Shown in pieces: positions 6,032 to 29,775 of a stretch of 64,000 nt of DNA. Numbering within the stretch: position 1 is the first letter of the stretch; the number at the start of each line of letters is the position of its first letter. The translations under genes were made by a program, and so were the position numbers. Source of the stretch: Trichomonas vaginalis G3 (Eukaryota; Parabasalia; Trichomonadida; Trichomonadidae); assembly GCF_026262505.1 (NCBI RefSeq), contig NC_067207.1:5960252-6024251 (forward strand). Reading direction: 5' to 3'. Under the pieces are notes generated by a model. The model ran no database searches. It was not told the DNA's origin and was given only the letters and a program-made list of their open reading frames with translations.

Positions 6032-6055
6032 AAAAAAAAAAAAAAAAAAGGCAGT

Positions 6056-6088
6056 GGGGCCTCCAGGCACTTCGTGCCCTCTAGCCCC
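6056..6088. repeat. nested tip palindrome, left end copy 1
   Basis: GGGGC and GCCCC form an outer stem and GGCAC-TTC-GTGCC an inner hairpin. The same structure recurs at 6143-6176 and, inverted, at 29720-29752 in the right terminal repeat. Such a fold could serve end recognition or replication priming; that role is inferred. Confidence 0.7.
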
Positions 6089-6142
6089 GAAGATGTTAGT
6101 ATAAAATGAGTTTAGTATAAAATGAGGTTTTTTTGGGTATAG

Positions 6143-6176
6143 GGGGCCTTCCAGGCACTTCGTGCCTTCTAGCCCC
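6143..6176. repeat. nested tip palindrome, left end copy 2
   Basis: Second copy of the GGGGC / GGCAC-TTC-GTGCC / GCCCC structure, about 55 bases inside the first. It is preceded by GGTATAGGG rather than GGCAGTGG, so it is a diverged tandem copy of the element tip. Confidence 0.65.
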
Positions 6177-6263
6177 TAAAATTTTTGTAGAGAACTCAAA
6201 ATAGTATAACTGTTGTCCGGACAAGTAAGGGTCTATCGTCGCTACAGAAAAGTTACGGGCGTT

Positions 6264-6448
6264 CCAAGTAGACTGGACTTTGAGAGACTCTTTAGAAACT
6301 TTAGACGTTTTACATAACCATCCATGTTTTTACTTTACATCCGATAAAAAGTGGTTTGGAAACCGTTATGAGATGGTTAGAGGACATACATGACTATGAG
6401 TTTTAGATAGAATATGAGAAGGTCCTATAAACCGGAGAAAGTGTCATA
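6264..6448 (+). pseudogene. methyltransferase gene fragment inside left terminal repeat
   Basis: This stretch matches, nearly base for base, the minus-strand reading of 28840-28647, the C-terminal half of the element's own D12 methyltransferase gene. It has one extra A in a run and a deletion of about 10 bases, so it is not translatable. Homology stops abruptly at GTGTCATA; beyond that the two terminal repeats agree with each other (ATAAACATCTGTCA) but not with the gene. Confidence 0.85.
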
Positions 6449-6487
6449 TAAACATCTGTCAAAAGCCGCTTTTTAACTTCACTTAAA

Positions 6488-9400
6488 ATGCCACGTAAGC
6501 TACGTAAGAATATACGTAAGAGGAAGAGAGCATTGAAACATCCAATAGTAAGACTGACACCACAACAACAGTTGCAACAACAAATGCTGAATGACCCCAC
6601 TATGTTGCAACAAATGTCAAGCAATCCTATGCTTTTAAACCGAGTCATTGTGTGCACAGAGTGGAGGTTTAAGAGCGGCACTTTTAGCGAAAATGGCAGG
6701 CTATGGTGGAGCTGCAGACGAACAGCCTATAACCCTCAAAGTCAAATGAATTTGAGTTCACTCAAAAATCAAATAGCAGATGTCAAAAAGTCAAACATAG
6801 ACATACAGAAACAAATAGGTGAAAACGAAAAGAAACTAGAATATGACAGACACACAAAGAAACTCAATGAGTTAAACGTAGAGAAAAAGAAGAAAGAAGA
6901 ACAACTGAAAGAACTAAGTACAGAGCAATATGCGAAAAAAGTGTCAGAAAAAGCAGCAGAAGTAGCAAAAATGGAACAAGATGTCATAAATTTGAAAAAC
7001 CATACTACTCAATATAAAGTACTGAAAGATGAAGAGATAAAACAAAAAGCCCTGAAGACATATATGGATAGCGATGAGTATAAAAAAGAAGTTGAAGCAA
7101 ATGTAAAGGCAGAAAAACTTTTACAGTTGCAAAACCAAACCGTACAGTATGAAAACTTAGCACAAGAAAGTAAAAATAACGACGCAGCCATGCAAAAGGC
7201 AATGAAAAGCGCAGAATATATAAAAGCTAACAATGACTGGTTAGATGCCCAAGCCAACGCTAAAGCAGCCCAACTTATAGGGTCAATAAGGACAAAAATA
7301 CAAGCGGATGAAGACAGTTCAAATGAAGCTTTAACAAATGCTGACTTTAAGAACGCCTTCGAAGCTCTTCATAGTAAGGTGAAACTAGTGAACGACTTCT
7401 CATCTGGAAAGAAACTGAAGTCTGAAGGTTTCGACAAAGAGTTAAAAGAAGTAGCACAAAATATGACGAAAATAACAGATGCAGCAACGAGACAGGCAGT
7501 TCAAAGTGCCTATGACGCCGTTAGAGCAACTGTTGTGGAAAGTCAAGAAAAAGAGTTACAACAGACCAAAACAGACCTAGTAAATGCTTTCTTAAGAACG
7601 AAAAGTCAGGTAGGACATTATGCTGCAGATGGAACATATGTGCCAGCTGGTGGAACTTATATACCACCAAACCCTCCAAGAGAAGCACCTGCACCAGGAC
7701 TACCTAGAACATTTACATCGTCACATGGACACAGACACAGGCATGCACCAAAACCAACACAACAACCAACAGTTCAAAACCCTGCACAACAACCAACAGT
7801 TCAAAATCCAGCACAACAACCAACAGTTCAAAATCCAGCACAACAACCAACAGTTCAAAATCCAGCACAACAACAACCAGCACAGCAACCAACAGTTCAA
7901 AACCCTGCACAACAACAACCACAAACAGAGCAAGGACATAAAAGAAGTAGAGAACAAGGAAACCAAGAATTCTTAAAAATGCTTAAAGAAGAGTGTGGTT
8001 TCCCAGATACTGTTGACTTTAGTGACAGATATAAAGAAGCTATTAGAAAGTTCAAGGATGGAAATACTGACCCGAACCTATTTAGCTTTATGGCTCAGCA
8101 CCAAAACGGATATAATCTCAAACCTGGAAAATACAAGCTCGCTAAGAGATATGATTTAATAGCATATCATCCAAATGACATGAACGAATTTACTCCGAGA
8201 TATTTGGTGTCAGAGCTAAATGACAATTCAACTCTCTTCATGAAACGCGTAAAAAATAGAGACGGAACGAAAGAAGAAAGGTTTATGAGTCCGGATGACT
8301 TAGATAGGGAACTTGTTAAAAACGGTCTCGGAATATATGAAATGCCACCAGATGAGGTACAAGAAACTCCACAGGAAGAAGTTCAGATACAACCAGACAT
8401 GGAAGAAATAGTTCAGCAACAACAGCTAGAAGAGCCTGAAGGAAACGAACAAGTCCCTCCTTTGGAAACTAACTTCACAGAACTAGATGAAGATTTAGAA
8501 CAGCCGAAAAATCTTGACCCTCAACAAGTGTATGCGGAGAATATGGAATCTTTCCAAGAGTCTAAAAAAAATTCGGCTGACATAGTAGAAGAATATCGAA
8601 AAATGTTTGCCGACATACAAAAGACTCCAACACCAGATGAAAATATTCAGCATAGAATGGAAGTACTGAAAGAAAATGTAAGCAAATACAACAACTCTTT
8701 TTACTTACGAGCATTTAACGTTCAATCTTTGGATGAACTCGGTGAAAATAAAAGGTTAAATTTCAAGAAAACATATAGAAATGAAACATTGTTTAAAGTT
8801 CACTCAGAACCTAACCAATATGGAAACAAACCTACTTTTGTTTCTGCAGACTATGGAACTACAATGAGATGGGGTCATAAAGCTAACCCGGATAGGTGGT
8901 TCATAAACTTACAACCACAATTCCAAGAAGTTGTAGACGCAATGGAAGTGAATGGTGAACCAGATATAGCTGGTATTTTAAGCGCGGCTTTAATGCCATT
9001 GAAAGATATGAAAGATGCAGATATTTTGAACCAGTATGAAATGAACATGGCTGATGGAAATATAACACCTGACGTTCTAGAACATTTATCTCAAAGAACT
9101 ACCAAGAACCATAAAGATGGTATATTTGGTGAAGAGTTTAGAAAGAAAGTTAGGGAGGAGAGAAGGAAGAAACCTATTGTACATGACCTTGCAAACGAAA
9201 GTTTACAAAATGTCATAAAAACTTACTTTGCAGGCGATGAACTGAGAAGGGATGAATATTAAGAAAACTCAAATGGACAGTACCAAATGAAATGTTAGTA
9301 TTGAAAAACATGTTCCTTGACAAAATAAAACCAACTACAGAAATAAATGACGCAAGACTGAAACATTGGGTAAAAGCTTTCCCATTCACAAAAGATATTG

Positions 9401-13465: not shown

Positions 13466-14701
13466 ATGTACAGAATAGATGTTTCAGATTTTTATGACTT
13501 CCAAGCCTTCAGAAATATGTGTCCATTTAGAGACTATAACAAAGCAGTCGAGAATTTGAAACGTTTAGTCATTTATGTTGACTCTGCCCCAGAATGTTAT
13601 GTCATGAAAGAATGGGATGTAGTCTTTAACAAACCAAGAGCAACCATAGTTTCAGAACAAGAATGTAGACAGAAACTTAAGAAAATAAAAGTCGTACAAG
13701 TTGGTATGAAGATGTTAGATGCTTGGGATATCTTATTGTCAAAACTTGAAGATTTTTCAGTTCGTGGTATAAAGTTTTATACACCTTCTCCAAACTTCTA
13801 TTCTATCTTCACTGGATATAAATACGAACAAGTAGAATGGAAAGAAAATGTTATAGAAGCTTGGTTAGACCATGTCAAAGAAATTATATGCAATGGAAAC
13901 GAAAGAGTCTATGAGTATATCTTATGTTGGTTTGCAAACATCTTACAACATCCAAGTGCTAAAAATGAAACTGCTCTCATCATAATTGGAAAACAAGGAA
14001 CAGGTAAGAACACTTTCTTTACAGATATCTTATGCAAACTGTTAGAGGGCTATTCGAACCCGAATATGACAAACTTAGAAAACATCTGCGGTAAATTTAA
14101 CTCTTCAATAGAGAATATGAAACTTATAGTATGTAACGAACTTCAAAGTATAGATACAACAAAAGTTTTGAACTCAGATGCTTTGAAGAGTCTTATAACA
14201 GACAAAGTTGGAGTTGTTGAAAGAAAATATAAAGACCAAAGAGTTTGTGAAAATGTTGCAAATTTCATCATGGTTTCAAACAATGCCGTTCCGATGAAGT
14301 TAGAAAGTTCTGACAGAAGATATGTAGTTGTCAGAACGTCAGAAGCTCATATGCAAGATACAGAATATTTTGACGACTTAGCAGAAACTTTGACATCTGA
14401 CTTTTACAACCACTTGTTCTCATATTTCATGACATTAGATATTTCAAAGTTCAATCCAAGACAAATTCCACATACCGAAGAGAGACAAACATTGTTAGAA
14501 GCAAACAAGAGTGTATATGAACTGTTCATAGATGAGACTAACTTTGAGTGTTTAGATGAAAGGTCATTGTACGATTCGTATAAACAATATTGTCAAGAGT
14601 ATGGTTATATGACAGCGTCTAAACGAACATTCTTGGCAAATGTCAAAAGTCTTTTAGACGTACAGAATGGTGTATATACAAAGAAAAATTTTTCTGAGTA
14701 A
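13466..14701 (+). CDS. SF3 helicase
   Basis: Replicative superfamily 3 helicase of 411 residues, expected to form a ring that unwinds the element's DNA. Walker A is GKQGTGKN at about residues 175-182. Walker B ends in NE (LIVCNELQ). Motif C is NFIMVSNN, followed by an SSDRRYVVV Arg-finger segment. This matches the virus D5-like / DUF5906 group. The N-terminal 150 residues have no recognised primase active-site motif. The C-terminal 90 residues look like a winged-helix tail. The ATG at 13466 directly follows the A/T leader. The gene is intact. Together with the polymerase it would form the replication module; virophages and Polinton-like viruses carry comparable helicases. Confidence 0.9.
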   Translation: MYRIDVSDFYDFQAFRNMCPFRDYNKAVENLKRLVIYVDSAPECYVMKEWDVVFNKPRATIVSEQECRQKLKKIKVVQVGMKMLDAWDILLSKLEDFSVRGIKFYTPSPNFYSIFTGYKYEQVEWKENVIEAWLDHVKEIICNGNERVYEYILCWFANILQHPSAKNETALIIIGKQGTGKNTFFTDILCKLLEGYSNPNMTNLENICGKFNSSIENMKLIVCNELQSIDTTKVLNSDALKSLITDKVGVVERKYKDQRVCENVANFIMVSNNAVPMKLESSDRRYVVVRTSEAHMQDTEYFDDLAETLTSDFYNHLFSYFMTLDISKFNPRQIPHTEERQTLLEANKSVYELFIDETNFECLDERSLYDSYKQYCQEYGYMTASKRTFLANVKSLLDVQNGVYTKKNFSE

Positions 14702-15174: not shown

Positions 15175-15621
15175 TTACATGTCATATCTCACCTTCTCTG
15201 GCTCTGGTTCTTTCTTCTCTTCTTCTACTTTCTTTTCTTTCTTTTCTCTCTTCTTCTTCTCTGGTGGAGTCACGTCAAACTTCTCAGAACCATATTTTTG
15301 TAAAAGTGCTTTGTCATTTAATAGCTCTTCTATTCTGTTTTCTATTTCATCTTCAAGAACAGCGCATGTGTCTTCTTTGCATTCTAAGAAGTTTTGTTGG
15401 ACTTCATCTCTCCAAGAGGCGTCATCTCTGTCAACAAGTCTGTCATTGACAAATTTTAAGACTGCTCTGCTTAATGTTTTATGGTTCTTGTCATATTCCC
15501 AGAAACAGAACTTTAGAACAAATTCCCCTTTCTTGTTTACACTATGTAAGATTTTATGGTCGACAGATGTTTTGCTGTCGAAAAGCTTATCTCGAATATA
15601 GATAGCGAAATCGCTAGACAT
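15175..15621 (-). CDS. unknown protein with charged Lys/Glu tail
   Basis: Intact 148-residue protein on the minus strand, convergent with 14739-15158 and divergent from the ATPase. Residues 1-100 are mixed alpha/beta. Residues 115-145 are almost entirely Lys, Glu and Pro (PEKKKREKKEKK). No family recognised. Confidence 0.65.
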   Translation of the reverse strand: MSSDFAIYIRDKLFDSKTSVDHKILHSVNKKGEFVLKFCFWEYDKNHKTLSRAVLKFVNDRLVDRDDASWRDEVQQNFLECKEDTCAVLEDEIENRIEELLNDKALLQKYGSEKFDVTPPEKKKREKKEKKVEEEKKEPEPEKVRYDM

Positions 15622-15657
15622 TTTCTAAAAGATAAAAATTTTAATTTTTCTAAAAAT
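15622..15657. promoter_or_regulatory. 36-bp divergent promoter
   Basis: Almost pure A+T between the start codons of the 148-residue protein (minus) and the ATPase (plus). It contains AAAAATTTTAATTTTT, so both genes probably share one short bidirectional promoter. Confidence 0.5.
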
Positions 15658-16533
15658 ATGTTAGAAAAAAAGTTTGCTGACATTGACAAGAAATTTGAGA
15701 ATGTTTTAAACAAGAACAAGAGGAAGTTGGAAAATGCTCAGATAAAACCCATACATGACAAGTTCTTATTTGCTCAGAATGGTATAACAGGTCTAATCGC
15801 ACCACCTGGGTCGGGTAAGACTTTCACTTATCTTAAAATGGCTGCACAACAACAAGAACTAGATGAGAAGAACCCATTCTATGAGTTAGTAGTCATTTGT
15901 TCGACTTCTGGTCAATTTGACCAAACCGTCAATTCGTTCAAAGATATTATAAAAAAGTCTAAGTTAGTATGTATAAAAGACTCTGAGTTGTTAGATTGGA
16001 TAAAGAAGTACCAAAGAAGAGTTTTGAAGTACAATGCTATAAATGAGTATATAAACTCGAAGTTTAAAGACCCAAATGAGGAAATGCAGAGAATATTAGA
16101 GAAGAAACACTTCAGAAACAAACAGAAAGAGATAGAATACATTTCGAAGAAATTGCAATCTTACGATTGGAAGACTTACCCTCACAGATGTCTTCTTATC
16201 TTAGATGACTTTGCTTCTCATCCTTTGTTAAAGAACAGAGAACAAGATATGTGTCGAATTCTTAAGAAGCTCAGACATTTTAACATCTCAGTTGTCATTT
16301 GTGTACAGACAGCCAAGAGTTTAAGTAAGGATGTTAAAAGAATACTTACTGATATTATACTTTTCCCCGGATTGTCCGAAGACGATTTCATGGAACTTAT
16401 GAAAGAGTCCATGGCAGGTAAGTTTGACAGACATGAACTATGGGAGAAGTACAAAGTCATACAAGACCCTCATACTTCTTTCAGAATTCATATCTACGCG
16501 AACAAAGTTCAAATTGTAAAAAGTCAAGCTTGA
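15658..16533 (+). CDS. A32/FtsK-like genome-packaging ATPase
   Basis: DNA-packaging motor of the PRD1/Adenovirus lineage, 291 residues from the ATG at 15658. The frame is open to 15556, but that part overlaps the divergent gene. Walker A is GLIAPPGSGKTFT at about residues 48-60. Walker B is LLILDDFA at about 177-184, with two acidic residues as in A32-type ATPases. VVICVQTAKSL follows as sensor-like strand. It is a Polinton hallmark and would push DNA into capsids. The frame is intact, but its 3' end meets an 18-base direct repeat (16521-16538 and 16716-16733), and the last residues may have been altered by the segment inserted there. Confidence 0.85.
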   Translation: MLEKKFADIDKKFENVLNKNKRKLENAQIKPIHDKFLFAQNGITGLIAPPGSGKTFTYLKMAAQQQELDEKNPFYELVVICSTSGQFDQTVNSFKDIIKKSKLVCIKDSELLDWIKKYQRRVLKYNAINEYINSKFKDPNEEMQRILEKKHFRNKQKEIEYISKKLQSYDWKTYPHRCLLILDDFASHPLLKNREQDMCRILKKLRHFNISVVICVQTAKSLSKDVKRILTDIILFPGLSEDDFMELMKESMAGKFDRHELWEKYKVIQDPHTSFRIHIYANKVQIVKSQA

Positions 16534-21387: not shown

Positions 21388-23541
21388 TTATTTCATGCAA
21401 TGTTTTATTTCTGTGCCGTCTTCAAGTATGCCCCAGTACTTACGCTTGGAGAGGACATGAACTTCGGTGAAAATTTTGTCCAATTTGAATTGACCCATCT
21501 TTTCACCGACCATACCCATTTCAATGAGTTTGTCATACCCTTCTTCGTTCGTCATGAGTGCGTCAATGTTCTCATAGTAAACCACAACTTTCGATTTGAC
21601 TTCGGAGAAGAATTTGTTGTAGTTGTCAAGGACTGCCTTTGCGAACTGAGGGTACGACCAATGTTCGACAATAGGTTTTAATGTGGTTACTAAGCCATTT
21701 TGACCTTGAGTAAATTCGTACTTCAAAACAAAAGGAGAAAACCTTTCAACAAAGTTGTCGACCTTCTCATAGTGTTTACTCTTCATCGTTTGAGGTTTCT
21801 TAATGGAATATCCCCATGTCGAATTCATAAGCAATTTGAGTGTCATTGCAAGTTTGGGGTTTGAAGCTTTCCTAATATCATACAGTTGTTGTATGACTTT
21901 TCCAACTGTATAGTTCCTTCCCGGGAACTCACCATCTTCGTTTGGAATTCCAGTCGGAATATATTGGACAAACCTCATGTACGCAGCGTTAAGGTCGACA
22001 TAGTATATTTTTTCGTTTGAGTCGAACTTGTCGCAATGAATCGGCCCAGTTTGTGGAAATTCAAGTGAGTCTCTTATCTTCTGAGAAACTTCTCCTGTTA
22101 TCTCATAAACATCGTCGAAGCAACCTGTTTCATATAAAACCTTCTGACCTAACTCAGATGCTCTCCAATACAATTTGACGTCAATTGGATGTCTCAATGG
22201 AAGTTTGTTTATAGCATCTTGAAGTTCTTGCAACCTCATTGGAAGTTCTTCTGGTTCAGGTTGGTATCCGAACAATCCAACTCCTTGTGGAACTGTGTAC
22301 TTCTTTTGTACTATAACTTTGTCTGGAACAACTTTTGGTCTTGCTAACAATGAAAAGTTTGTTTCGTCTTTTGGTACAAAAGTTTCTGTCAGCTTGTCAT
22401 CTGGAATTGGTTCCAACAAACCTTTCTCGAAAAGAATGTTAACAGCTCTGACAATGTTGCACTTGCCTTTTCCGAACAATGGGTTTGTAAGACTTTCGTT
22501 CAACATGAAGTGGTTGTGGACAATTACAATCTTCAACCATGGTAAGTCTTTGTCAACAACATAGTCGTCATGTGAAGAACCTTTCTCAGTCGGTATGTTG
22601 ACTCGGATATTCACATTTGCCAACGGTGCAACTTTTGCCAATTGACCTCTAAGAATGTACCTTGTCTTCACACATGACTCAAGATACTTCATTTTCTCAT
22701 CTGTAACAAGACCAGAGTTCCTGAGACATGTAAGAATACAAGGTTCATTGACAATTGTTTCAATTGAATTGTAAATTCCATACCTTGTCAAGTCAATGTT
22801 AGACTTATTTCTGAACGGGAAGTATCCAGCATGTTGTCTGACTGCTTGAGGGTTAGGTTGGTACCATTCGAACTTCACACTTGCAATTCCTTCAATTGCA
22901 TTCAAAATGTCTGAGTCGGAGTCAACCATTTGTTCTCTCTTTGTAGTCTTGAAAGCGTCAAGAAGTTGTGCGGCTGTTGTGACATTGCCATGTGCATAGT
23001 AAATGTGGCCGTCCAAATCTGTTATGGTCAATCTGAGGTTATATCCTTTCTTATTTCCGTCTTGAATTGCAGCAAGTACACCCATGAAGCCTTCTTTGTT
23101 CTTTCCTTCGTCAAAGTTTACTGTAAAGGTTCGACCAGATGTAATTTGACTTCTAACTTCACGATACTTTTCATATGCATATCTTGTTCTTTCCATGGGA
23201 GCATGTGTGTCTTCACCTTTTCCTTTTTTCCTTCTCAAAGGATGCAATTGTTCGTCATGTTTCCAGTAGAATCTGGCAAAGCCGTCGTGTCCTTCAACTT
23301 GAGGTTCACTAACATCGAAAGGCATGTCCATAAGACGTTCTTCTTCTAACCTCTCTAGTCTGTTTGGATAATTGGCACGTGCTGTTTCCAAATCCATTTC
23401 GTAGCGAAGACCAGACAATTTGTCATAGACTTTTATGGGTCTTCCCTTCCTATATTTAAAATTCTTCGAAACTCTCCAACCATATCTTTGCAACTCTGCT
23501 TTTATTCTAGCAGATTTTCTATCCATTCTATATGGGGGCAT
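21388..23541 (-). CDS. family B DNA polymerase, divergent
   Basis: Replicative polymerase of the element, 717 residues, intact. Motif A is YYVDLNAAYM (Asp at about 516), motif B KLLMNSTWGY (about 567-576) and motif C YYENIDAL (about 654-661), where family B usually has Y-x-D-T-D-S. The second Asp, the metal ligand, is kept; the first is Asn. Only about 57 residues separate motifs A and B, too few for the TPR2 insertion of protein-primed polymerases. I cannot find ExoI/II/III motifs in the first 340 residues, so proofreading may be absent or very divergent. It starts at an ATG behind an A/T-block leader (23542-23570). The intact frame suggests selection or recent activity. Confidence 0.85.
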   Translation of the reverse strand: MPPYRMDRKSARIKAELQRYGWRVSKNFKYRKGRPIKVYDKLSGLRYEMDLETARANYPNRLERLEEERLMDMPFDVSEPQVEGHDGFARFYWKHDEQLHPLRRKKGKGEDTHAPMERTRYAYEKYREVRSQITSGRTFTVNFDEGKNKEGFMGVLAAIQDGNKKGYNLRLTITDLDGHIYYAHGNVTTAAQLLDAFKTTKREQMVDSDSDILNAIEGIASVKFEWYQPNPQAVRQHAGYFPFRNKSNIDLTRYGIYNSIETIVNEPCILTCLRNSGLVTDEKMKYLESCVKTRYILRGQLAKVAPLANVNIRVNIPTEKGSSHDDYVVDKDLPWLKIVIVHNHFMLNESLTNPLFGKGKCNIVRAVNILFEKGLLEPIPDDKLTETFVPKDETNFSLLARPKVVPDKVIVQKKYTVPQGVGLFGYQPEPEELPMRLQELQDAINKLPLRHPIDVKLYWRASELGQKVLYETGCFDDVYEITGEVSQKIRDSLEFPQTGPIHCDKFDSNEKIYYVDLNAAYMRFVQYIPTGIPNEDGEFPGRNYTVGKVIQQLYDIRKASNPKLAMTLKLLMNSTWGYSIKKPQTMKSKHYEKVDNFVERFSPFVLKYEFTQGQNGLVTTLKPIVEHWSYPQFAKAVLDNYNKFFSEVKSKVVVYYENIDALMTNEEGYDKLIEMGMVGEKMGQFKLDKIFTEVHVLSKRKYWGILEDGTEIKHCMK

Positions 23542-24763: not shown

Positions 24764-25716
24764 ATGACGAATTCAAACAAGGACCCTATGTTTCTAAAGC
24801 AACAAAGAAAGCACTCATGATAAAAATCTTTAGTTCAACACCAAATGCTTGGTTTATGGATATCTTGGAAAACATTCCGAGTTAGAGAAGATGGACCACC
24901 ATACTGGCTAATATTTGTTGGTCAAAACACAAGATACTGTGAAGCCATACCATTAGTCCAAAAATATTTTAGATGTGAAAACTGCTTTGACAATATTCGT
25001 TGACAAATACCATCCAACAAAACTGACATCTGACTATGAAAGTTCTTTCAAATCAGATGATATTAAAAACTATCTGCGTTCAAAAAATGTAAACCAATAT
25101 TTCATTGTCGACCAAAACCATTCTGCTCTTGGTGTCATTGACGGTTGTATAAAAATTAAGAGACTTAAACCAACCACAAGGTGGTGAAGCAAATGAAATG
25201 TCATATGACGACAAATATAGACACTTCTCCATGGCAAAGATGAGACAAGTTTTAAATATTTACAATAACCGTAAACAAAAAGGTTTGGGAAACCACTCCC
25301 CCGAAGAAATGAAAAACAACCCTGACTTAGAGAAAGACTATATATTTAATAATTTAGTCAAAAGAGACAAACAAGAAAGAATGCCGGGCTTCAAACTTCA
25401 GAAAGGTGACAAAGTAAAAATAGAAATACCTAAACGCGACCCATATGAAAATACTATTGACTATGACAACAATGGGAACCCGACAGGTACTCACATTCGT
25501 GTTCGTAAAAATAGAAGAAAGTATACAAGAGAATATTATGAAGTTTTAGGCAAACATGGCAAAATGTACACACTGCAAGCAGAAGATAAAACTACTATTG
25601 TCAGACCTCGTTTCAAACTTGTCAAAGTTCAAGGTGGTATACTTTCAAAGACAGTTCCTAACAAATATAAGACAACTCCTGACGAATATGCTAAAGAAGT
25701 TGAAAATGACGACTAA
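24764..25716 (+). pseudogene. retrovirus-type integrase (rve, DD35D), broken
   Basis: Polinton integrase that would join element ends to host DNA. The catalytic core has FMDILE (first Asp), LTSDYESS (second Asp) and, 35 residues later, HSALGVID, where the third acid is Asp instead of the usual Glu. After the core comes a C-terminal domain rich in Lys/Arg with KLQKGDKVKIEIPKRD, chromodomain- or SH3-like. The frame is interrupted just after the ATG at 24764, near 24870-24890, near 24970-24985 and near 25160, so it is not translatable as it stands; the last 172 codons (25198-25716) are open. No N-terminal HHCC finger could be made out. Its start is 16 bases from the divergent gene at 24747, and its stop overlaps the stop of the tail-fibre gene. 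Confidence 0.8.
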
Positions 25717-26967
25717 GCAATTCTATACCATGCGTAAACTGTCATGTAAGGTGGCATGTATTCTTTACTTTGTCCCGTTGTTTGCGTATATCCTGAAACG
25801 AAATGTGTATGGTTTCCTTCTCCCTGAGTGTCACTCCAGTAACAATTTATAGCAAACTTAACTCGTCTTTAACATCATATCCTTTACCTTTTGTCATTCC
25901 TGACCAATCCCAATATCTATGCTTATGCCAACCTGCTTGAGATGTACTTAAATCTATGTAGTGACTGTGTGCAGGTAAATTTTCACCTGAAATCGTTTTA
26001 CTTCCACCTGTTTCCTTTGAAGAGTTTGCACAATACAAAAACCTGTCGACTATTTGAGTCCAAGTTCCAAAACCAAGTACTACTTCTGGTCTGGTAGAGT
26101 TCATTGACGTATAAATAGAACCTATAGGATATACTGTTTGAAGTATTTCTGTCTTTAATGTTTGAAGCTCTGTTTTGTCAGCTTTTTTATCATATAAATC
26201 TTGAGCAGTGAATTTAACATTGTTTTCATCCTCCATGACATAGACATTTCTACATCTAGTGTATTTCATCGTCGTTATGTCATCCTCCGATGTTAAACTT
26301 GTGGAAAGTTAGGAGGTTTCCAAGTAGTATATCCCCAGTTTCTTCAACCGTTCCTTCAATATTTTCTATACCAACAGTTGTAAAACTTGTATGTGTATGG
26401 TTCTTATCTGCTTTCTTTTCAAGGCTAACGTTTAAGTCTGTTATTTCAGAAGATGTATGTGTATGTCCAACGTCACTTTTCCTGTTTAAGGTTTCTTGTA
26501 AGTTTTGTAATATTTGCAATGGTATGTGTATGAGTCTTTTTAGAATATTCGTTTTCAGCTCTTGTCACTTCACTTGACATTTTATTGTCAACATATGTTT
26601 TGTCTGCTAGTTCAGGATGATGAGTATGTTCTTTCGTTGCATATGTTGCATCTGCTCTGTCATTTCCTTGAACTTTTTCAATGACATACTCTTTGTCAGC
26701 TTTGTTGTCAACATCTGCTTTCAAAAGAAGTTCATCTATAGGTTTCTCGTTTAAATTCCTTTTGTTGGATTTATACAGACAGTATGGTTCCTATTGTCTT
26801 GAAACAGAAACTCATCTGTCATTGGGTTCATTGTCAGTTTTAAGTTTCCTTCTTTCAATGACTCATATCTTAGAATAGTTTTGAAAAGTTTGTTGTGTTC
26901 TTATTTAGAGCTTGCACAATGAGTTGTCGGTTGTGTTGTATCTCTCATAGACGCTGTTTCATTTGAC
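25713..26967 (-). pseudogene. bacteriophage-type tail fibre / tail-collar protein, broken
   Basis: Minus-strand gene of about 415 codons in several frames. After an ATG at 26967, the middle carries repeated K-A-D-K-x-H-T-H-T units (EHTHHPELADKTYVDNK, KKADKNHTHT, VGHTHTSSEITDL), typical of trimeric phage tail fibres. The C-terminus has YPIGSIYTSMNST, FGTWTQIVDRFLYC and LPAHSH, and after a shift a final YMPPYMTVYAWYRIA. This is the collar / T4 gp10-gp12 type ending. Breaks lie near 26900, 26760, 26510, 26270 and 25858. It shares two stop-codon bases with the convergent integrase. It would be a receptor-binding spike of the virion; unusual in a eukaryotic Polinton. Confidence 0.8.
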
Positions 26968-26985
26968 ATTTTTATTCTAGATAAA

Positions 26986-27300
26986 ATATGCTTTCAATAG
27001 AAAAAGAAAATTCTAGAGTTGCTAACAACTAAACCATTAGATGAACTTTTTACTAACGTCGGTCAAAAGTTTGAGACAGAGACCGTAAAGCATGAAGGCT
27101 ATCGTTTTGAACTACCATTGAGATGGCTAAGAGACCCATCCGTCACAAAAGCTGTTGGCTTTCGTAGAATGAAGTTCATTTCAGAAGCCATACATGGTTT
27201 CCCATTTACGGTCGGTTTTGAAGTTCGATACATAACAAAGAAAAACGTGCGTATGAGAAATTTGAACAGGGAAAACTTTTACAAGTTAGTTTGCTTGTAA
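26986..27300 (+). pseudogene. small unknown protein, frameshift near start
   Basis: The ATG at 26986 is followed after six codons by an A-run (about 27000-27010) where the frame shifts. The rest, about 95 codons ending at 27300, is open and basic/aromatic (PLRWLRDPSVTKAVGFRRMKF). It is divergent from the tail-fibre gene with 18 bases between starts. No family recognised. Confidence 0.5.
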
Positions 27301-27356: not shown

Positions 27357-27800
27357 ATGCAAAAACAGTACAACATTGACGAAGGAGAGTACCATCTCGA
27401 TATTATATATGACAGGAAAAATGCAACTGTTAAAATCGATAGAATAGAAGACCTTGGAGAAAACGTTTATATTTCTACAAAATATAACAACTTGGCATGG
27501 TATAGATTTTTGAGGATGTTAAATCAGCCTGCAGAATATCCAGTACACCCGAACTTTTATGAAGTCGAAAACCCTAATGGAACATATGAAAATGTTTTCG
27601 ACCAAGATGCTATTATAGTTCATGCTTCATTTTCTGGCGCCCAAAACTCTTTTTTATGCTTGGCAAATGACTTTTACGAAAAAACCTACAAAGCTATATG
27701 AACCGCCGAGTGGAAGTATTTCAGACTTTCAAGTATGGTTTACTACAGATGGAAGAAAGAGAATAATTCCATTATACCACGCGTTTTACTTAGAACTTAG
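27357..27800 (+). pseudogene. unknown protein with in-frame stop
   Basis: 114 codons from the ATG at 27357 to a TGA at 27699-27701. The same frame then continues with 32 more coding-like codons (WKYFRLSSMVYYRWKKENN) to TAG at 27798-27800. A single substitution creating TGA explains it. Mixed alpha/beta, aromatic-rich, no family recognised. Confidence 0.5.
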
Positions 27801-28103: not shown

Positions 28104-28463
28104 CTAATGTCCGCCTAGTCTCTTACGTTTCCTGTTGTTCCATAGCATTCTTTAACTGGAGCTCATACATTCTATTTCTCTCTGGTAGAAAAACATATTC
28201 TGGGTCAACTCCTGTGTTCGCGTCATCTGCATAGAGTTGTTTATATTCCACTTCAGGGTTTGTATAAAACTCTTTCCATCTCATATTTGCATACCATGGT
28301 GGCAAACCTAACGCAGCGTCATTTGACATGGCAGTTTGCATTTGTACATCTGTTGGCACTTGACCATAGTTTGCCATTGCAGTTTGTATTCTAACTTCAT
28401 TTGGAATATTCTCTGGTTTGGTTGTCCAGGTTGCTGTGCATTCGCTAAGTTCTGTGCGTCCAT
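28104..28463 (-). pseudogene. small virion-type protein fused by frameshift to methyltransferase frame
   Basis: An ATG at 28463 opens a Gln/Asn-rich N-terminus (MDAQNLANAQQPGQPNQ). A shift near 28410-28420 moves into the long frame that also reads back into the methyltransferase. The body contains PNEVRIQTAMANYGQVP and a near-repeat DVQMQTAMSND, then LPPWYANMRWKEFY. The open frame ends at 28123, but one base away a basic ending (NRKRKRLGGH) runs to a stop at 28104. No family recognised; its small size and place suggest a virion component. Confidence 0.5.
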
Positions 28464-28486
28464 TTAATATTAGATAAAAATATCTC

Positions 28487-28621
28487 TTACGAGTACATAT
28501 GCTGAACATTTGCTGGCATTGGTTCATCTTCATATTCTCTATATCTTTCTGCCACGTCAAATAAGTAAATGAACACAATGGAAAAAAACCTAAAACAAGT
28601 AGTCCTATTTCAAACCAACAT
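28487..28621 (-). pseudogene. tiny single-span membrane protein, frameshifted
   Basis: An ATG at 28621 begins in the last codons of the methyltransferase. A hydrophobic stretch (FEIGLLVLGFFPL, then VFIYLF) is split over two frames and leads into an acidic/Pro tail ending HMYS at 28487-28489. About 44 codons. Function unknown. Confidence 0.4.
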
Positions 28622-29424
28622 TTACTTACCAATAAAATTTCTTTGTTATGACACTTTCTCCGGTTTATAGGACCTCTCTCATATTCTATCTTGTCATATC
28701 TAAACTCATAGTCATGTATGTCCCCTAACCATCTCATAACGGTTTCCAAACCACTTTTATCGGATGTAAAGTAAAAGCATGGATGGTTATGTAAAACGTC
28801 TAAAGTTTCTAAAGAGTCTCTCAAAGTCCAGTCTACTTGGTATTGAAAATCCCATGTGTTATAGAACGGCGGGTCCACTATAAAGAAAACATTTTCCTTG
28901 TCTTTGTATTTTTCATACAACTCTGTCCAATGACATCTCACAAACTCTATACCCTCAGTATATTTTTCTATGTTCTCTTTGAAAACATTTTTATAGTTAA
29001 GATATAAAACTTTTGACATAAGTGTTTCAATGTCATGAACTCTTATAGAACCACTATATAATAGTCTAGCAGATATACTATCCCAGTCAATATATTCTGC
29101 TTTTTTCAAAACCTCTCTCACAATATTTTTCTTATCTAATGGTATACTTTCCATCTTACCTATAGGTATCTTTTCTTTTAACTCTTTCAATATTTTGTTA
29201 GTGTCTGGTATATGTTTGAGACGGTCCATATAGTTGTCGAAGTCATTGCATATAATCTTTGAGTCTGGGAATACGGTATGGCACAAATGGGACATATAGA
29301 AACTTCCACCGAACAAATCTACAAATGTTAGACCATTCGGTAGTTTCTTAAGTTCTCTCAATAGAATATCTTTACATCTACTCTTATTTCCAAAGAAGGG
29401 TAACGGTGGTTTTGTAAAATTCAT
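28621..29424 (-). CDS. D12-class DNA adenine methyltransferase (Dam-like), read-through 3' end
   Basis: N6-adenine methyltransferase. From the ATG at 29424: LPFFGNKSR (motif X / start signature of D12 enzymes), FVDLFGGSF (SAM-binding motif I), IICNDFD, and FFIVDPPFYNTW (catalytic DPPF, motif IV). About 265 residues to the natural end EILLVSK, where a stop seems lost and the frame runs on to 28123 through two other genes. It may protect element DNA or mark it; target unknown. Two TGTCACTTTT boxes (minus orientation) lie 32 and 43 bases upstream. Its 3' half is also present in both terminal repeats. Confidence 0.85.
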
Positions 29425-29455
29425 TTTATATATATAATAAAAATGTTTTTTCCTG

Positions 29456-29476
29456 AAAAGTGACAGAAAAGTGACA
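29456..29476 (-). promoter_or_regulatory. two tandem Initiator-like boxes before methyltransferase
   Basis: AAAAGTGACA twice (29456-29465 and 29467-29476), the reverse complement of TGTCACTTTT, oriented toward the methyltransferase. The same box precedes host genes at 4067, 37776 and 39606, so this element gene appears to use a host-type promoter. Confidence 0.65.
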
Positions 29477-29600
29477 GATGGAACACATACTTTTGCAGTA
29501 AGGACATATGGGGTAGAAATGAGGTTAGAAATGAGGTTAGATCTAACCATCTACCCTAAAATATATTTTTGCCGAATTCTGTATAAAATTCTGAGTAAAA

Positions 29601-29769
29601 TGACAGATGTTTATATGACACTTTCTCCGGTTTATAGGACCTCTCTCATATTCTATCTTGTCATATCTAAACTCATAGTCATGTATGTCCTCTAAACTTC
29701 ACTTATACTAAACATCTTCGGGGCTAGAGGGCACGAAGTGCCTGGAAGCCCCACTACCTTTTTTTTTTT
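29601..29769 (-). repeat. right terminal inverted repeat
   Basis: Inverted counterpart of 6032-6460 with an 11-T tip. It keeps the tip hairpin (29720-29752) and about 85 bases of methyltransferase-derived sequence (29613-29697), but lacks about 250 bases present on the left. Confidence 0.85.
29720..29752. repeat. nested tip palindrome, right end
   Basis: Inverted copy of the 6056-6088 structure, with GGGGC/GCCCC outer stem and GGCAC/GTGCC inner hairpin around a 3-base loop. Confidence 0.7.
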
Positions 29770-29775
29770 TAAATA
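29770..29775. repeat. right target-site duplication (TAAATA)
   Basis: TAAATA directly after the terminal T-run, matching 6026-6031. Six bases is the expected Polinton duplication length. Confidence 0.6.

What the first reader, a model, noticed from the sequence alone, without database searches (positions are those of the whole stretch)
25713..26967. Bacteriophage-type tail fibre/collar gene inside a eukaryotic Polinton
The minus-strand frames show repeated K-A-D-K-x-H-T-H-T units and a C-terminus with YPIGSIYTSMNST, LPAHSH and YMPPYMTVYAWYR, features of T4-type short tail fibre, collar and gp10 proteins. Polintons are not known for such proteins. It would give the virion a phage-like trimeric receptor-binding spike, perhaps acquired from a bacteriophage in the mucosal or gut habitat. 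It sits convergent to the integrase and inside the terminal repeats, so it belongs to the element. It is frameshifted here.
Basis: partly seen in the sequence, partly recalled or inferred. Interest (0 to 1): 0.9.

Follow-up and report, generated by a model that had tools for sequence, protein, structure and literature searches.

The report
Swappable phage-type fibre in Trichomonas Polintons
The virus-like Polinton elements that fill the genome of the parasite Trichomonas vaginalis carry a gene for a bacteriophage-style tail fibre; the copy here is dead, but many others look intact and have exchanged their tips between distantly related elements, as phages do.

Summary
Minus-strand pieces at 25713-26969 are a dead Polinton gene (at least four frame changes, one in-frame stop) for a fibre with phage tail repeats (PTR) and a T4 gp10 C-terminal-type tip (Gp10_C, E 7.8e-18); the tail-collar profile PF07484 is not met. 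It is not contamination: a tip-core motif occurs 2,137 times in the genome (control 0), and 14 of 20 loci read are intact end to end. What I did not find in print is the anatomy: three fibre bodies, four tip-head classes, a 22-residue shaft repeat of varying number, and recent tip transfer between lineages whose other genes are about 26-33% identical (tip dS 0.28, other genes saturated). Tips are under purifying selection (w 0.20-0.31). Best reading: a modular receptor-binding fibre kept by selection for spread between cells. Expression, virions and receptor are not shown; structure prediction failed.

The parts
26901..26993 (-). N-terminal piece of the broken fibre gene (ATG at 26969), ends in an in-frame stop
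   Evidence: resembles by eye the N-terminus of intact class A paralogues
26751..26900 (-). anchor-region piece (SLKEGNLKLT...)
   Evidence: 89-92% to L073-L075
26473..26790 (-). shaft piece with ADK/HTH units
   Evidence: PTR PF12789 22.7 bits, cut-off 27
26280..26564 (-). shaft piece with SDVGHTHT and KADKNHTHT units
25847..26308 (-). stalk end plus most of the Gp10_C tip
   Evidence: PF21939 E 7.8e-18; 93-97% to L073-L075
25713..25868 (-). C-terminal end of the tip (YMPPYMTVYAWYRIA)
   Evidence: the same ending closes intact paralogues
25153..25716 (+). integrase C-terminus, convergent to the fibre
   Evidence: 97-98% to the same gene in L073-L075; the rve (PF00665) integrase of L077 matches this stretch and the bases just before it in three pieces of 25-41%
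6038..6461 (.). left inverted-repeat arms of the element
28702..29770 (.). right inverted-repeat arms of the element
6488..9262 (+). DUF4106 protein, named as the major capsid protein by PMC10120064
   Evidence: PF13388 E 6.6e-255; capsid role from the paper, not tested here
15556..16533 (+). Pox_A32-type packaging ATPase
   Evidence: PF04665 E 8.7e-07
13466..14701 (+). D5/VapE-type protein
   Evidence: PF19263, PF05272, PF03288
21388..23541 (-). DNA polymerase B fragment (motifs recognised by eye; no Pfam match)
   Evidence: NCBIfam none
27357..27701 (+). DUF7777 gene next to the fibre
   Evidence: PF24992 E 1.2e-37

Best explanation
The region is a dead copy of the Polinton's fibre gene. In intact copies a short N-terminal anchor (different in each of three fibre classes; inferred to dock on the capsid) leads into a shaft built from PTR or related KADK units and ends in a T4 gp10-type tip whose middle part, the head, is inferred to bind the receptor. 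The head behaves as a cassette. Four head classes were seen, and the same anchor or body is found with different heads. Tips and the stalk next to them have moved between Polinton lineages whose other comparable genes are diverged to about 26-33% identity. The shaft changes length by adding or losing near-identical 66-nt units, each with one HxH motif (inferred metal site, by analogy recalled from T4 gp37). The gene is kept by purifying selection, with a head that seems to change faster, which fits use in attaching virions to new cells. Shown: domains, intact copies, synteny, module exchange, selection below neutrality. Inferred: trimer, capsid docking, receptor binding, infectivity.
For: Domains: profile of 13 tips to T4 gp10 chains, E 2.6e-20 to 3.7e-20, positions 1-148 of 148; PHROG tail families. 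Synteny orf150-orf116-INT-fibre-orf93-orf114-methylase in 3 of 3 window-like loci fetched at about 8 kb, with PolB at the edge in 2 of 3 (L073-L075); in class C element L077 an rve integrase lies beside the fibre. Long frames: 110 of 150 scored rows have an open frame of at least 380 aa; 14 of 20 loci read are intact end to end. Module exchange: tips of L076 and L077 95.7% aa, dS 0.28, while the one other gene they recognisably share is 26% identical and saturated; stalk L073-L077 dS 0.19 while integrase is 33% identical and saturated; B-anchor fibres carry heads 0, 1 and 2, C bodies heads 1 and 2 (177 of 205 proteins parsed); among 11 class C fibres, pairs with different heads are 54% identical in the head (mean) but 98% in the N-terminus. 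Selection: tip A w 0.31 (0.17-0.55), tip B 0.20 (0.13-0.30); core 0.15 and 0.10, head 0.56 and 0.33. Repeats: 0-4 units of one exact motif in 82 proteins; compared units identical in nt in 6 of 7 arrays, 98.5% in the seventh (the last unit of each array left out).
Against: PMC7845603 found only 25 of 38,656 TE ORFs expressed and 1 of 3,907 of the gene class named after phage tail fibre, so Maverick genes are nearly silent in the culture studied. Neither structure model was usable (mean pLDDT 30.6 and 41.5), so trimer and head surface are not shown. Head and core rates overlap in the codon bootstrap, widely for type A (0.19-2.23 against 0.04-0.38) and slightly for type B (0.16-0.67 against 0.03-0.19). 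Integrase w (0.245) is like the fibre's, so fibre selection does not stand out. ATPase w is far lower (0.016), but its 15 copies, like the 20 class A loci, were picked as the best protein matches, which lowers w. A-anchor fibres carried only head 0 (96 of 96 parsed; most came from head 0 queries). Exchange between lineages was dated in single pairs, not genome-wide.
Confidence: 0.7

Rival explanations
1. Relic: the elements now spread only inside the genome, and the fibre is a passenger that still looks intact because the burst of copies was recent.
For: Very low expression of Maverick ORFs (PMC7845603, passages), which also calls the expansion recent. The 123 scored ATPase copies (of 5818 candidates, picked as the best) are 99-100% identical in protein. 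The window's own copy is dead, and 6 of 20 loci read are not intact.
Against: Tip w is below 1 in both tip types, and across tip types the core has dN 0.14 against dS 2.7; exchanged tips kept an open frame in the pairs studied; shaft length and heads vary while frames stay open.
Confidence: 0.2
2. The protein is a host-cell adhesin spread by the elements, used by the parasite itself on human or bacterial surfaces rather than in a virion.
For: The parasite is known to use large repeat families of surface proteins (recalled). One copy family is called 'keratin-associated protein family' in GenBank.
Against: No stretch of transmembrane strength in 4 of 4 proteins checked (max 19-residue hydropathy 0.98-1.33; signal peptides were not tested with a program); the gene sits at the same place beside the integrase in 3 of 3 window-like loci.
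Confidence: 0.06
3. Bacterial or phage contamination of the assembly.
For: The tip is closest in kind to phage proteins, 30-36% identical in the 40 listed of 146 phage records.
Against: 2,137 exact tip-core motifs (1061 forward, 1076 reverse) in the 181-Mb assembly, control 0; flanked by Polinton genes; single clade apart from phages.
Confidence: 0.01

Closest known systems
T. vaginalis Maverick fibre genes in print (PMC7845603 Table 2; PMC12220804 section 13; GenBank names)
   Same: Same species and element type; PTR shaft, collagen in one class; thousands of copies.
   Different: The text I read does not mention the Gp10_C tip, head cassettes, tip exchange between lineages, shaft-repeat number or selection. 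Whether the Table 2 class is this gene could not be checked.
T4 baseplate protein gp10, C-terminal domain (PF21939; PDB 2fkk, 5hx2)
   Same: The tip profile aligns over its whole length.
   Different: None of gp10's N-terminal domains (PF07880, PF23618, PF22670), which the T4-like control has, was reported in the intact fibres scanned.
Lactobacillus delbrueckii phage antireceptors (Ld3 and kin)
   Same: Gp10_C tip of 84.9 bits in Ld3; Lactobacillus phages listed are 31-36% identical.
   Different: The N-terminal part of Ld3 is Prophage_tail PF06605, not an anchor plus PTR.
Polinton-like virus fibres tipped by the endosialidase chaperone (Peptidase_S74; PMC12220804)
   Same: Phage-type modular fibre on a Polinton-type virus.
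   Different: No S74 match in this genome; the paper also says parabasalids lack it. Here Gp10_C takes the tip position.
Organic Lake virophage OLV18/OLV19 (Phage Tail Collar domain; PMC3671162, passage read)
   Same: Related small DNA virus with a phage tail-type protein thought to serve adsorption.
   Different: Named after the Collar domain; PF07484 has no match in this genome.

Membership tests
Gp10_C (PF21939) | Profile match over the curated cut-off | tested here: met
   66.2 bits in the broken window piece, cut-off 27; 91-92.5 bits in three intact full-length paralogues, 62.3 in a truncated one
Gp10_C (PF21939) | Trimeric C-terminal domain fold | tested here: inconclusive
   Sequence profile aligns over 148 of 148 positions to T4 gp10 chains; AlphaFold2 monomer models failed
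PTR phage tail repeat (PF12789) | Profile match over the cut-off | tested here: met
   172.5, 85.4, 77.0 and 104.1 bits in 4 of 4 class A paralogues; 22.7 bits, under the cut-off of 27, in the window piece; not reported in the class B fibre L076
Phage tail collar (PF07484) | Profile match | tested here: not met
   0 matches in the whole genome, 4 of 14 control genomes ring
S74-tipped PLV fibre | Peptidase_S74 (PF13884) at the C-terminus | tested here: not met
   0 matches in the genome, 1 of 14 control genomes rings
Polinton/Maverick | Retroviral-type integrase | tested here: met
   Window piece homologous to the rve integrase of L077
Polinton/Maverick | Protein-primed DNA polymerase B | tested here: inconclusive
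   Motifs recognised by eye in 21388-23541; no Pfam or NCBIfam match
Polinton/Maverick | Packaging ATPase and capsid protein | tested here: met
   Pox_A32 and DUF4106; DUF4106 as capsid protein is from PMC10120064
Polinton/Maverick | Terminal inverted repeats around a long element | tested here: met
   Arms about 22-24 kb apart; the arms are patchy
Receptor-binding fibre | Binds a cell surface | not testable with these tools
   Inferred from domain kind and rate pattern only

The most novel reading that the evidence does not exclude
The Polintons of this parasite are, or were until lately, infectious viruses with a shared pool of phage-type receptor-binding heads that recombine freely between lineages. 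The boldest form is that the heads still bind bacteria, so that virions ride into the trichomonad on the bacteria it eats (that trichomonads eat bacteria is recalled). The tips are of the same kind as the antireceptors of phages of Lactobacillus and gut Firmicutes, and a virophage tail protein study (PMC12724248, title and abstract start seen in listings only) reports binding to a cyanobacterial lipopolysaccharide.
Probability: 0.1. Interest if true: 0.9.

Novelty: new variant of a known kind. Interest (0 to 1): 0.55.

Why it matters
PMC10120064 (passages) says that the high copy number and lack of capsid genes in T. [quoted passage not shown] A fibre has no obvious use inside a cell, so selection on it and exchange of its heads bear directly on whether these thousands of elements spread between cells. 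The heads also give a concrete protein to test for a receptor, and the exchange between lineages suggests that different elements met in the same cell lines.

Tried and rejected
Contamination was rejected. The tail-collar and S74 families were rejected. A close virus relative in IMG/VR was sought: single-protein query, none; alignment of 13 tips, not accepted as too diverse; alignment of 6 tips, 13 loci of 25-53% identity. I listed open frames for 6 of the 13 (L060-L065) and judged by eye that they look like tailed phages; the gene content of the other 7 was not inspected. The search of 5.8 billion proteins returned 648 hits, but the listing stops at 120, all named T. vaginalis G3, so other trichomonads could not be judged. 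Asp-box-like repeats in class B suggested a beta-propeller; the 15 hits found are all T. vaginalis and the model failed, so no fold is claimed. Matches of the PTR region to leucine-rich-repeat chains in the PDB (best E 5e-7) outscore the tip's own match there (0.016); I took them as repeat composition, by judgement. A TCTA late-promoter idea failed: by eye no common motif upstream of 18 window genes. Within the window lineage distance matrices were only partly concordant: Nterm-INT r 0.14 p 0.16, tip-INT 0.25 p 0.13, stalk-INT 0.52 p 0.01, Nterm-stalk 0.26 p 0.03, Nterm-tip 0.38 p 0.001, stalk-tip 0.43 p 0.003; I draw nothing firm from this. An early identity figure between orf269-like genes of L076 and the other elements proved not significant and was dropped. 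The head figure was cut at the wrong place for some rows and was redone. Rows dropped before counts: 28 of 205 proteins with no parsed head; 6 of 50 loci with no complete tip; 6 of 20 loci not intact; 2 of 13 class C proteins. Rows are not independent: by place L002=L073, L010=L074, L011=L075, L028=L076, L043=L077, and 8 loci encode a listed protein letter for letter.

Full report
What is there. Searched apart, one piece matches Gp10_C (PF21939, E 7.8e-18) and one PTR (PF12789, below its cut-off). The copy changes frame at least four times and has an in-frame stop. It lies inside the inverted repeats of a Polinton of about 23.7 kb that also carries DUF4106, a Pox_A32-type ATPase, a D5-type protein, a T5orf172 protein and an integrase piece. 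I call it T. vaginalis because a fibre read from it (L018) equals TVAG_234840 letter for letter.

Copies. A search of the 181-Mb genome with the tip gave 4671 first-look candidates, of which 150 were scored and matched. The open frame is at least 380 aa in 110 of 150 rows (the window's own row included) and under 300 in 26; a long frame is not always a whole gene, and of the 20 loci read, 14 are intact from start to the usual end. The exact tip-core motif occurs 2,137 times, and its reversed control 0 times. Three window-like elements read over about 8 kb keep the same gene order around the fibre.

Anatomy. The 14 intact class A proteins are 403-504 aa. They have an N-terminal anchor, spaced HxH motifs, a stalk (PPNFPQGLTS...) and the tip. 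In P0001 HxH motifs fall at 148, 170, 192, 214 and 236, exactly 22 residues apart, with three more in the tip. In seven arrays that could be compared, the compared 66-nt units are identical in nucleotides in six and 98.5% identical in one. Unit number varies: of 82 proteins, 9 have none of this exact motif, 44 one, 14 two, 11 three and 4 four. Longer arrays exist: PTR matches run without a break over about 670 nt at C1:5143883-5144554. Class B has a different anchor and, in many copies, an Asp-box-like module for which the search found only T. vaginalis proteins (15). Class C, about 950 aa, has a weak collagen match (23.8 bits, cut-off 27.2, in L077), PTR and the tip; the precomputed Pfam column shows collagen in most of its listed relatives. 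It is the best candidate for the collagen-PTR fibres mentioned in PMC12220804.

Exchange. Heads fall into four classes at 60% identity (177 of 205 proteins parsed). Class A anchors carry head 0 only (96; most came from head 0 queries). Class B anchors carry heads 0 (9), 1 (7) and 2 (1). Class C bodies carry heads 1 (16) and 2 (4). The fourth head class was seen in a single protein. Among 11 class C fibres, 8 have head 1 and 3 head 2: between the two groups heads are 54.2% identical on average (lowest 51.6) while the first 130 residues are 98.1% (lowest 96.2); within a group heads are 90-93% on average. Between lineages the contrast is sharp. L076 (class B) and L077 (class C) share tips at 95.7% aa, 93.5% nt and dS 0.28, while the one other gene that I could recognise in both is 26% identical (E 5e-7) with saturated synonymous sites (pS 0.79). 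Four other pairs of tips compared have dS 0.21-0.45 (L025-L077, L026-L031, L028-L034, L026-L030). The stalk of window-lineage L073 and of L077 differs by dS 0.19, while their integrases are 33% identical and saturated (pS 0.77). That L076 is a Polinton rests on a 29% match of that gene to the window's element (E 6e-6) and on polymerase motifs seen by eye (no PDB, Pfam or NCBIfam match); L077 has rve integrase and matches to the window's ATPase and to orf269.

Selection. By Nei-Gojobori counts with codon bootstrap, tip A (17 sequences) has w 0.31 (0.17-0.55) and tip B (27) 0.20 (0.13-0.30). Core is 0.15 (0.04-0.38) and 0.10 (0.03-0.19), head 0.56 (0.19-2.23) and 0.33 (0.16-0.67). Integrase C-terminus (13) is 0.245 (0.09-0.64), packaging ATPase (15) 0.016 (0.002-0.039). 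Between tip types the core has dN 0.14 and the head 0.87. Site entropy over 120 proteins is 0.09 bits in the core, 0.32 in the head and 0.16 in the C-terminal part. The method ignores phylogeny and recombination, and the type A, integrase and ATPase rows come from loci picked by protein similarity to the window, which lowers w for the picked protein; type B rows were picked by profile score. The numbers show constraint but not its timing, and the head-core difference is a tendency, not a proof.

Relatives. A profile of 13 tips matches the T4 gp10 C-terminal domain over its whole length (E 3e-20) and, weakly, T4 gp37 (E 0.04). In 50,697 phage records the B tip matches 146; the 40 listed are 30-36% identical, among them Dorea, Blautia and Lactobacillus delbrueckii phages and T4-like gp10. 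The ten T. vaginalis tips used form one clade (99/99); the place of its sister among phages is open. Phage relatives carry other N-terminal modules, so the tip is joined to varied bodies there too.

Known or new. PMC7845603 (passages) lists a Maverick gene class named after viral structural protein S1, PRD1 capsid protein and phage tail fiber protein: 3,907 analysed, 1 expressed, 3,104 covered by small RNA. I could not check that it is this gene. PMC12220804 (section 13, first of two parts) reports collagen-PTR fibres in 20 T. vaginalis elements. PMC10120064 (passages) names DUF4106 as the capsid protein. PMC4642659 and PMC11071308 were searched for fibre terms without a hit. None of the text I read describes Gp10_C tips, head cassettes or their exchange in these elements. 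The library lacks most subscription papers, so this is no proof of novelty.

Limits. Other trichomonads could not be searched. Nothing here shows expression, particles or a receptor.

Noticed in passing
G000 C5:7577031-7612629: Four fibre tips spaced about 11.73 kb apart on the same strand, as in a head-to-tail array of element pieces.
   Followed up: no
window 17352 (-) upstream; L077 6811 upstream: A leader with TTTTATTTTGTATGTAAGAACAG stands before the T5orf172 gene and before the KilA-N gene of a distant element; D5 and PolB share another leader. Possible Polinton promoters.
   Followed up: partly
P0137-P0141, P0146-P0148, P0150: GenBank calls these class C fibres 'organellar and viral DNA polymerase type B'; most carry Gp10_C and PTR in the Pfam column.
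   Followed up: partly
L076:5746-6706: What looks by eye like a mariner-type transposase lies on the minus strand, not far from the class B fibre gene.
   Followed up: no
window 28123-29550 (-): A DNA adenine methylase-like gene (DPPF motif by eye, no Pfam match at E 0.1) overlaps the right inverted repeat.
   Followed up: no
G000 C1:5143883-5144554 and C2:71262-71933: PTR arrays of about ten units in open frames of 555 and 537 aa, longer than in the proteins counted.
   Followed up: no
P0123 residues 282-556: Seven loosely Asp-box-like motifs in a class B fibre hint at a propeller-like module; the search found it only in T. vaginalis.
   Followed up: partly
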